Origin: an uncultured Acidobacteriota bacterium
GTDB taxonomy: Bacteria; Acidobacteriota; Blastocatellia; Pyrinomonadales; Pyrinomonadaceae
Length of the DNA: 64,000 nucleotides
Direction of reading: 5' to 3'
Assembly (NCBI GenBank): GCA_937859595.1
Contig: CALMAH010000036.1
Location: 62,001 to 126,000, forward strand
The first letter of the stretch is position 1. Each line of letters starts with the position of its first letter. The position numbers were made by a program, and so were the translations under genes. This document shows positions 61,935 through 64,000 of this stretch, piece by piece. The notes under the pieces are model-generated. The model was not told the DNA's origin. It saw only the letters and a program-made list of their open reading frames with translations, and made no database searches.

Positions 61935-64000
61935 TCAGAGTCTGGCTATCTTTTCCTCCATTTCAGCCAGCAATTTGTTGTCAACTTCGGGCAAAGCGTT
62001 CTCCGTCTTCAGGATATTAAAGAGTTGTATCGCATCTGAAAAACTTGCCCTCGCACGCAGTACATCGCCGAGGATGCTGTAGTTTTCTGCAAGGTTCTTT
62101 TTTGCCAACGCGATATCACGTCTTGCGTTCTTGTTTCCGGGATCCATCTCGGCGATCTGCTTCCATATCTCGATCGAACGTTCGAACGCACGATTTGATC
62201 CCTGCAGATCATTTTGAAGCCGTTTCGCGAGTCCCATCCGGTTATATATACGCCCGAGGTCGGTCTGATAAAAACGGTTGCGGGGTTCCCGACGGATCAG
62301 GACGGTGAACTGCTGCTCGGCCGCTTCGAGTGCTGCGACTGCGGCGGATGTTCGCTTCAGGTTGACCAAAACGACCCCTTTTCGATAGGTGGCCCGGGCA
62401 AGGTTATGGCGGGACTGGATGTCCGCCGGATCGATCTCTACACCGCGTTCTGCCGTCGAGATCGCTCGGCGGGAAAATTCAAGCGAGATTGCGTCATTGA
62501 TCTCTTCGTAGATACCGCTGGCGAGCATCAAAACGCGCCATGCGATATGCCGCGTGCGTGCGTCGTTCGGCCGTTCCGCGAGCAATGCTTCAACACCCGT
62601 CACGGCTTTGGCCATTTCCTTTTCCGCGCGCTCCTGCTCGCCATTCCAGGAAAGGGCATTGCCGAGATCGGCATGGGTTACGAAAAAGACCTCGCGCGTT
62701 TCCCGCGCGTCGGGTGCGAGATCCTCAGTTCCCGCTATTGCCAACTCTGCAAACCGTATGGCCTCACCATATTCGTTATTTGCCTGATGGTACTGCGAAA
62801 TTTCCGCAAGTGCCTTCAGGTATGACAACCTCACTGAGTTCTCGTCCGGAGCCTCCGCCAACAGTTCTTCAAAAAGACGCCGTGCCTCCATTAATGCAGA
62901 AAGTAAACCGGGCGTGTCACCTTGAGTAAATCGGGCGTTCGCTAGATGCCGAAAGTTCTCGGCAAGCAGCCGCCTGTTCTCAAAAGTGGAAGGCTGTCTT
63001 TGTCTTAAGGCATTTGCTTTCTCATAACTTGCCAGGGCTCCGGCGAGATCGCCCAGATTTGGCTTGCTCGGATGGCCTTGCAGCTCGCCGATCTTCTCGT
63101 AGGCGGCTGCCAACTCGGCCTCAAGCGTCAGGTCGCCAACGGCCTCGACCGAAAGACTGTCCAGATATTCGAGGGCGCGTTTGACCAATAATTCACGAGC
63201 TTCCGTAGAGCCTTCAAGTGTCTCTATCCTGGGGCTGATCTCAAACAGGAGCGCATTCGAGAGCTTTCTGACATCATCGAACCTCTTTTCGGCGCGATCG
63301 CGCTCCCGCCTTGCTTCTTCCGCCTGCCATAATGAGATCCCGAGACCGGCGAAAAGGGAAATGATAACTAACGCACCGGCTGCCACGGCCGCTTTGTTGC
63401 GCCGTATGAACTTTGATGCCAGATACGCGAACGTGTTCGGCCGAGCGAGTACTGGCCGGCCCGCGAGATATCGATCAAGGTCGGCAGAGAGCTCTTCGAC
63501 TGACGTATAACGTCGATCGGGTTCCTTCTGGAGACATTTCAGGCAGATATTATCGATATCCGGGCTTAATGCCGGCCCATAAGGCACAGGGCGGTCCGAT
63601 CTGCGACCGCGTACATAGCTTGGCTTTTCGGGATCCGAGCCCGTGATCGTCCGAATGATCTCGTCCAGGCTTTTCCCTTCAAAATGAAACGGTTTTTTTC
63701 CGGCTAACAGTTCGTAAAGGACAACCCCAAGACTATAGATATCGTATGCCGTCTTCTGCTTGAAAAAAAAAATCAGGTCAGGTGAGGCATAAGCCGGTGT
63801 AAACGCACGCATTACCGTTGCAGTTGTCTCTTCATCGGCTACGCCCTGGTCGATCATCTTCGCAAGGCCGAAATCGAGAAGCTTCGGTTCTCTATCTTGT
63901 GTTACAAGGATGTTTGTCGGCTTGATATCGCGATGAACCGTTAGATTTCTGTGTGCGAACGAAACTGCGGAACAGACCTTAAGAAAAAGCCGCAGCCTTT
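61935..64000 (-). CDS. PknB-type Ser/Thr protein kinase with TPRs, 5' partial, with adapter-derived codons
   Basis: The minus-strand frame is open from the right edge, where it reads LRLFLKVCSAVSFAHRNLTV. It then has the catalytic loop HRDIKPTNIL and metal loop LLDFGLAK, so the ATP-binding lobe lies beyond the window; a start at 63857 would be wrong. After TPAYASP the normal EQ-RGE-type stretch is replaced by DLIFFFKQKTAY, which is translated sequencing adapter, and then DIYSLGVVLYELL resumes. One membrane helix (AAVAAGALVIISLFAGLGIS) separates the kinase from a periplasmic-side TPR-like region of about 450 residues. The kinase presumably senses envelope conditions; FHA proteins such as the cyclase at 18 kb are possible targets. 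Confidence 0.88.
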   Translation of the reverse strand, partial: RLRLFLKVCSAVSFAHRNLTVHRDIKPTNILVTQDREPKLLDFGLAKMIDQGVADEETTATVMRAFTPAYASPDLIFFFKQKTAYDIYSLGVVLYELLAGKKPFHFEGKSLDEIIRTITGSDPEKPSYVRGRRSDRPVPYGPALSPDIDNICLKCLQKEPDRRYTSVEELSADLDRYLAGRPVLARPNTFAYLASKFIRRNKAAVAAGALVIISLFAGLGISLWQAEEARRERDRAEKRFDDVRKLSNALLFEISPRIETLEGSTEARELLVKRALEYLDSLSVEAVGDLTLEAELAAAYEKIGELQGHPSKPNLGDLAGALASYEKANALRQRQPSTFENRRLLAENFRHLANARFTQGDTPGLLSALMEARRLFEELLAEAPDENSVRLSYLKALAEISQYHQANNEYGEAIRFAELAIAGTEDLAPDARETREVFFVTHADLGNALSWNGEQERAEKEMAKAVTGVEALLAERPNDARTRHIAWRVLMLASGIYEEINDAISLEFSRRAISTAERGVEIDPADIQSRHNLARATYRKGVVLVNLKRTSAAVAALEAAEQQFTVLIRREPRNRFYQTDLGRIYNRMGLAKRLQNDLQGSNRAFERSIEIWKQIAEMDPGNKNARRDIALAKKNLAENYSILGDVLRARASFSDAIQLFNILKTENALPEVDNKLLAEMEEKIARL
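63742..63772. other. Illumina P7 adapter end plus poly-A inside the kinase gene (assembly artefact)
   Basis: Bases 63742-63762 match the 3' end of the standard Illumina index adapter exactly (beginning TCGTATGCC and ending CTGCTTG) and are followed by ten A, as seen when a read runs past its adapter. On the coding strand this gives FFFKQKTAY, a known contaminant peptide. The block replaces about twelve codons of the kinase activation segment. Confidence 0.95.

What the first reader, a model, noticed from the sequence alone, without database searches (positions are those of the whole stretch)
63742..63772. Sequencing adapter assembled into a kinase gene
A 21-base exact match to the Illumina P7 adapter end plus ten A replaces the activation-segment codons. 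The replacement keeps the expected spacing between ASP and DIYSLG, so the gene looks intact and could pass automatic checks. The translated FFFKQKTAY word can pollute databases and produce false kinase subfamilies.
Basis: partly seen in the sequence, partly recalled or inferred. Interest (0 to 1): 0.6.

Follow-up and report, generated by a model that had tools for sequence, protein, structure and literature searches.

The report
Illumina primer overwritten into kinase gene
About 31-37 bases inside a bacterial kinase gene are not bacterial DNA: they are the Illumina P7 flow-cell primer plus ten A, written over the real bases one for one, so the gene still reads cleanly, and the same kind of overwrite occurs in other published genomes.

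Summary
In detail: TCGTATGCCGTCTTCTGCTTG plus exactly ten A lies at 63742-63772. It is a sequencing artefact, not biology. The same genome has a second copy, in a ytxJ-like gene on another contig, again 21+10 bases, in frame and without length change. No other of 396 genomes of the phylum has it.

The string lacks index and AGATCGGAAGAGC, and the genome holds no AGATCGGAAGAGC, so common trimming would miss it. The replaced residues lie just after the APE (SPE) motif, not inside the activation segment.

Comparison cases with known native alleles (E. coli prophage, a Klebsiella phage-plasmid site in five records, Klebsiella phage Marfa, a metagenomic phage) show P7'+A written over native bases with no length change, and every native site carries 6-13 bases matching the P7 3' end (chance about 0.001 each). 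Klebsiella records mix primer and native bases column by column.

Best explanation: the flow-cell P7 oligo misprimed on homologous genomic sites; consensus calling then wrote the chimeric tails over native bases. Published "mutations" in Cupriavidus metallidurans (RFAQKPAYV to FAKQKTAYE) fit the same artefact.

The parts
63742..63762 (+). Exact 21-base match to the complement of the Illumina P7 primer (TCGTATGCCGTCTTCTGCTTG)
   Evidence: 0 of 100 shuffles give a match at up to 3 mismatches
63763..63772 (+). Ten A, the expected copy of the T10 spacer at the 5' end of the surface-bound P7 oligo
   Evidence: the other copy in this genome also has exactly ten A; ten is the commonest run length in the viral contigs scanned with only A4 required; T10-P7 design as in PMC11123353
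63739..63741 (+). ATA at the junction: either native Asp/Ile codons or the P7 8-oxoG position read as A; in both readings compatible with the P7 3' end annealing at a native ATATCG
   Evidence: E. coli native site ATATCGT; ambiguous here because the native allele is unknown
63773..63778 (+). Probable further wrong bases after the A run (TCAGGT): SPEQ, shared by all relatives recovered, reads SPDL
   Evidence: inferred
61935..63998 (-). Host gene: PknB-like Ser/Thr kinase with TPR-like C-terminal part (open at the window edge; 874-aa open frame in the whole contig)

Best explanation
Sequencing artefact. Inferred steps: (1) on the flow cell, the surface-bound P7 oligo (T10 spacer plus CAAGCAGAAGACGGCATACGAGAT) annealed by its 3' end to an internal site of a library fragment that happens to resemble it, and was extended; (2) reads from such clusters run native DNA - P7 complement - A10 - noise, with no index and no AGATCGGAAGAGC, so ordinary adapter trimming misses them; (3) a column-by-column consensus or polishing step, in which these tails were aligned without gaps, wrote primer bases over native bases. 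Shown here: the in-place, length-preserving replacement, the absence of index and ligation adapter, the A10, and (in comparison cases with known natives) the 3'-end homology of the native site and the mixing of native and primer bases. Not shown: the reads themselves, and the software step. The confidence given is for an in-place P7 artefact as such; for the mispriming step itself I would say about 0.7.
For: Exact 21+10 string twice in one genome, absent from 395 other genomes of the phylum. No AGATCGGAAGAGC and no P5 end in the genome. Both host genes keep length against relatives. Comparison cases with a close native allele: E. coli 2024CK-00535 against strain WCHEC005784, 1001 vs 1001 bp, all 22 differences inside the 34-bp block, native ATATCGT; Klebsiella phage-plasmid site in five records, four of them inspected, native ATCTCG, A-run reverting to native bases at different columns and one native base inside the primer part; Klebsiella phage Marfa against HMGUkp2, native ATCTCGTATGCCG, 13 matching bases; metagenomic phage L178 against L332, 320 vs 320 nt, native ATCTCGT. 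Chance of a 6-base 3'-end match is about 0.001 per site. Same-length replacement also against more distant relatives in L260 and L295 and Shinella KatG. C. metallidurans MSR33 'mutations' at a site matching P7 at 11 of 12 bases.
Against: Raw reads were not available, so the mispriming and consensus steps are inferred. The exact native bases of the window are unknown (closest relative 61% identical in protein), so P7 homology at this very site cannot be verified; the closest relative shows only 7 of 12 matches there. One index-less E. coli case (kdpA, L306) is not length-preserving and carries only A6. In one case (L186) relatives were too distant to judge. The T10/8-oxoG design of commercial flow cells is from memory; only a T10-P7 design from another group was found in the papers.
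Confidence: 0.85

Rival explanations
1. Ordinary adapter read-through from short inserts, misassembled into the contig.
For: The commonest way this string enters assemblies: most other hits are the full adapter with index at contig ends, also reported by Moeller et al. 2024 (PMC11536531).
Against: Here there is no AGATCGGAAGAGC, no index, the site is inside a 150-kb contig, and the length is unchanged; the E. coli and phage cases compared that carry the full adapter change the length.
Confidence: 0.08
2. A gap-filling or k-mer read-correction step pulled native reads onto the very abundant primer k-mers; no misprimed molecules existed.
For: Would also be length-preserving and start at a native-primer resemblance; the 21+10 length equals a 31-mer.
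Against: Partial reversion to native bases at different columns in Klebsiella records looks like mixed-read voting; the same site and signature appear in records of different isolates, and also in read-mapping variant calls.
Confidence: 0.12
3. A real sequence of the organism (true kinase variant or inserted DNA).
For: Frame is open and the kinase domain scores well.
Against: 31 exact bases of a synthetic oligo, twice, in unrelated genes, replacing conserved residues; none in 40 other genomes of the genus.
Confidence: 0.01

Closest known systems
Sequencing-adapter contamination of microbial genome assemblies (Moeller et al. 2024, PMC11536531)
   Same: Illumina oligo sequence assembled into published genomes
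   Different: That study counts AGATCGGAAGAG and finds it concentrated at contig ends; here the string is index-less P7 only, internal, length-preserving, and invisible to that test
Primer mispriming artefacts in HITS-CLIP libraries (PMC4858895, abstract read)
   Same: Library primer anneals to target-internal sites resembling it and creates reproducible false signals
   Different: Reverse-transcription primer in an RNA protocol; here the surface P7 oligo is inferred, and the result is false bases in a genome
Variant cluster in C. metallidurans MSR33 Rmet_5508 (PMC6266692)
   Same: Net-zero-length change RFAQKPAYV to FAKQKTAYE contains the P7 translation; native site matches P7 at 11 of 12 3' bases
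   Different: Reported as real mutations from read mapping; no A10 reported

Membership tests
Illumina P7-derived artefact | Exact match to the P7 complement | tested here: met
   21/21 exact, two copies
Illumina P7-derived artefact | Followed by A10 (T10 spacer of the surface oligo) | tested here: met
   exactly ten A in both copies
Illumina P7-derived artefact | Absent from relatives at the same locus | tested here: met
Ordinary ligation-adapter read-through | AGATCGGAAGAGC (or Nextera end) plus index before ATCTCGTATG | tested here: not met
   one search shows gene sequence directly before the match; none in the genome
P7 mispriming with in-place overwrite | No length change against the native allele | tested here: met
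   (protein length against relatives); exact DNA length in comparison cases
P7 mispriming with in-place overwrite | Native site resembles the P7 3' end | tested here: inconclusive
   met in comparison cases with a known native; native of this window unknown
P7 mispriming with in-place overwrite | Chimeric reads ending in P7'-A10 at the site | not testable with these tools
   no reads held
PknB-like Ser/Thr protein kinase (host gene) | Pkinase domain with HRD, DFG and subdomain IX motifs | tested here: met
   HRDIKPTN, DFGLAK, DIYSLG; Pkinase 6e-28

The most novel reading that the evidence does not exclude
Index-less, length-preserving P7 overwrites are a distinct, systematic error class: wherever a genome carries a good match to the P7 3' end, flow-cell mispriming can create a clean-looking false allele that adapter trimming and contaminant screens keyed to AGATCGGAAGAGC do not see, it recurs at the same site in different isolates' records, and it has been published as real mutation.
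Probability: 0.6. Interest if true: 0.5.

Novelty: not a real feature. Interest (0 to 1): 0.33.

Why it matters
The kinase and the ytxJ-like protein in this genome carry false residues. More widely, the error yields intact reading frames with invented residues, survives in complete genomes (E. coli, Klebsiella plasmids, phages), recurs at fixed sites, and in one paper was probably read as mutation. A screen for ATMTCGTATGCCGTCTTCTGCTTGA, not only AGATCGGAAGAGC, would find it.

Tried and rejected
k-mer-size (31) origin of the 21+10 length: weakened, since A10 is the commonest run in unrelated viral contigs and fits the T10 spacer. Insertion or gap-fill: made unlikely by unchanged length. Adapter words as a false protein family: no hit in Pfam or PHROGs. 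Papers holding the T10-P7-8-oxoG string of commercial flow cells: none found; the last query was rejected for a short term. L186 and Proteus phage Saba: no close native found. Salmonella plasmid hits were left unread.

Full report
What is there. The window is positions 62001-126000 of a 150-kb contig of a 3.8-Mb, 44-contig genome. At 63742-63772 stands TCGTATGCCGTCTTCTGCTTG followed by ten A. It lies in a PknB-like kinase gene on the minus strand, giving SPD-LIFFFKQKTAY-DIYSLG. The whole-contig frame is 874 aa. Pkinase still scores 98 bits against a cut-off of 31.7.

A second copy. The genome has one more exact copy, on contig 21. It too has exactly ten A and sits in frame in a small ytxJ-like gene: EARAI-SYAVFCLKKK-RHHSPQAFV, where relatives read for example RRISNAVEKRTGFRHHSPQAFV. 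Neither copy is preceded by an index or ligation adapter. AGATCGGAAGAGC and the P5 end are absent from the genome. In 40 other genomes of the genus and 395 others of the phylum the string is absent.

Length is unchanged. Relatives of the kinase have the same number of residues between the conserved flanks, and M. tuberculosis PknB aligns there without a gap. The changed residues follow the APE (SPE) motif, so they are the alphaEF-alphaF linker rather than the activation segment. The SPEQ shared by all relatives recovered reads SPDL, so a few bases beyond the A run are probably wrong as well.

How such strings usually look. In the viral set, where only four A were required, ten is the commonest run length. 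This fits the T10 spacer of surface-bound P7 oligos; a T10-P7 surface primer is described in PMC11123353. That commercial flow cells use the same design, with an 8-oxoG near the 3' end, is from memory.

Comparison cases with known native allele. (a) E. coli 2024CK-00535, phage tail sheath gene: 1001 vs 1001 bp against strain WCHEC005784, all 22 differences inside the 34-bp block; native ATATCGTTGACGG became ATCTCGTATGCCG. (b) A Klebsiella IncFIB phage-plasmid tail gene, overwritten at the same site in five records; native ATCTCGATGACG. In the four inspected, the A run gives way to native bases at different columns, and one keeps a native base inside the primer part. (c) Klebsiella phage Marfa against HMGUkp2, 1001 vs 1001 bp; native ATCTCGTATGCCG is a 13-base match to the primer. 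(d) Metagenomic phage contig L178 against L332, 320 vs 320 nt, native ATCTCGT. Same-length replacement against more distant relatives: L260 and L295 and Shinella KatG. Counter-case: E. coli kdpA, index-less but 13 bp longer, with A6. The cases compared that carry full adapters (E. coli bglG, cheB and kdpE loci; phages G4507 and G4500) change length.

Mechanism. This, the missing index, and the A10 tail point to the surface P7 oligo priming inside inserts. Column-wise mixing of native and primer bases points to consensus calling from mixed reads rather than to a physical insertion. The reads were not available, so these two steps are inferred. For this window the native bases are unknown and the closest relative shows no special match, so the priming step is argued by analogy here.

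A published case. In C. metallidurans MSR33, two SNPs, +CTT and -CGG in Rmet_5508 were reported as changing RFAQKPAYV to FAKQKTAYE (PMC6266692). It is probably the same artefact.

Verdict. The added value is its class: index-less, likely to escape ordinary trimming, length-preserving and recurrent. The test of Moeller et al. 2024 (PMC11536531), which counts AGATCGGAAGAG and finds it at contig ends, would not detect it.

Noticed in passing
G000:C21:14289-14319 (L004 2290-2320): Second P7'+A10 overwrite in the same genome, in a ytxJ-like gene, in frame and same length as relatives.
   Followed up: yes
NC_007974.2 2253535-2253579 (L341): Published 'mutations' in C. metallidurans MSR33 Rmet_5508 (PMC6266692) match P7 mispriming.
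   Followed up: partly
NZ_CP117742.1 47707-47740 and four other Klebsiella plasmid records: Same tail-gene site overwritten by P7' in five records; native carries ATCTCG.
   Followed up: yes
NZ_CP157243.1 1731289-1731322: P7'+A10 in a prophage tail sheath gene of a complete E. coli genome.
   Followed up: yes
CP132317.1 589679-589712 (L351): P7'+A10 inside Shinella katG, in frame, RLLFFFKQKTAYEISWADL.
   Followed up: partly
plasmids collection, Salmonella records: Eleven Salmonella plasmid records carry the string, several near the same coordinate; not read, because the plasmids may be virulence plasmids.
   Followed up: no
L003 1561-2121: The gene directly upstream of the kinase looks like a sigma-70-family (ECF) factor by reading the translation; not tested.
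   Followed up: no
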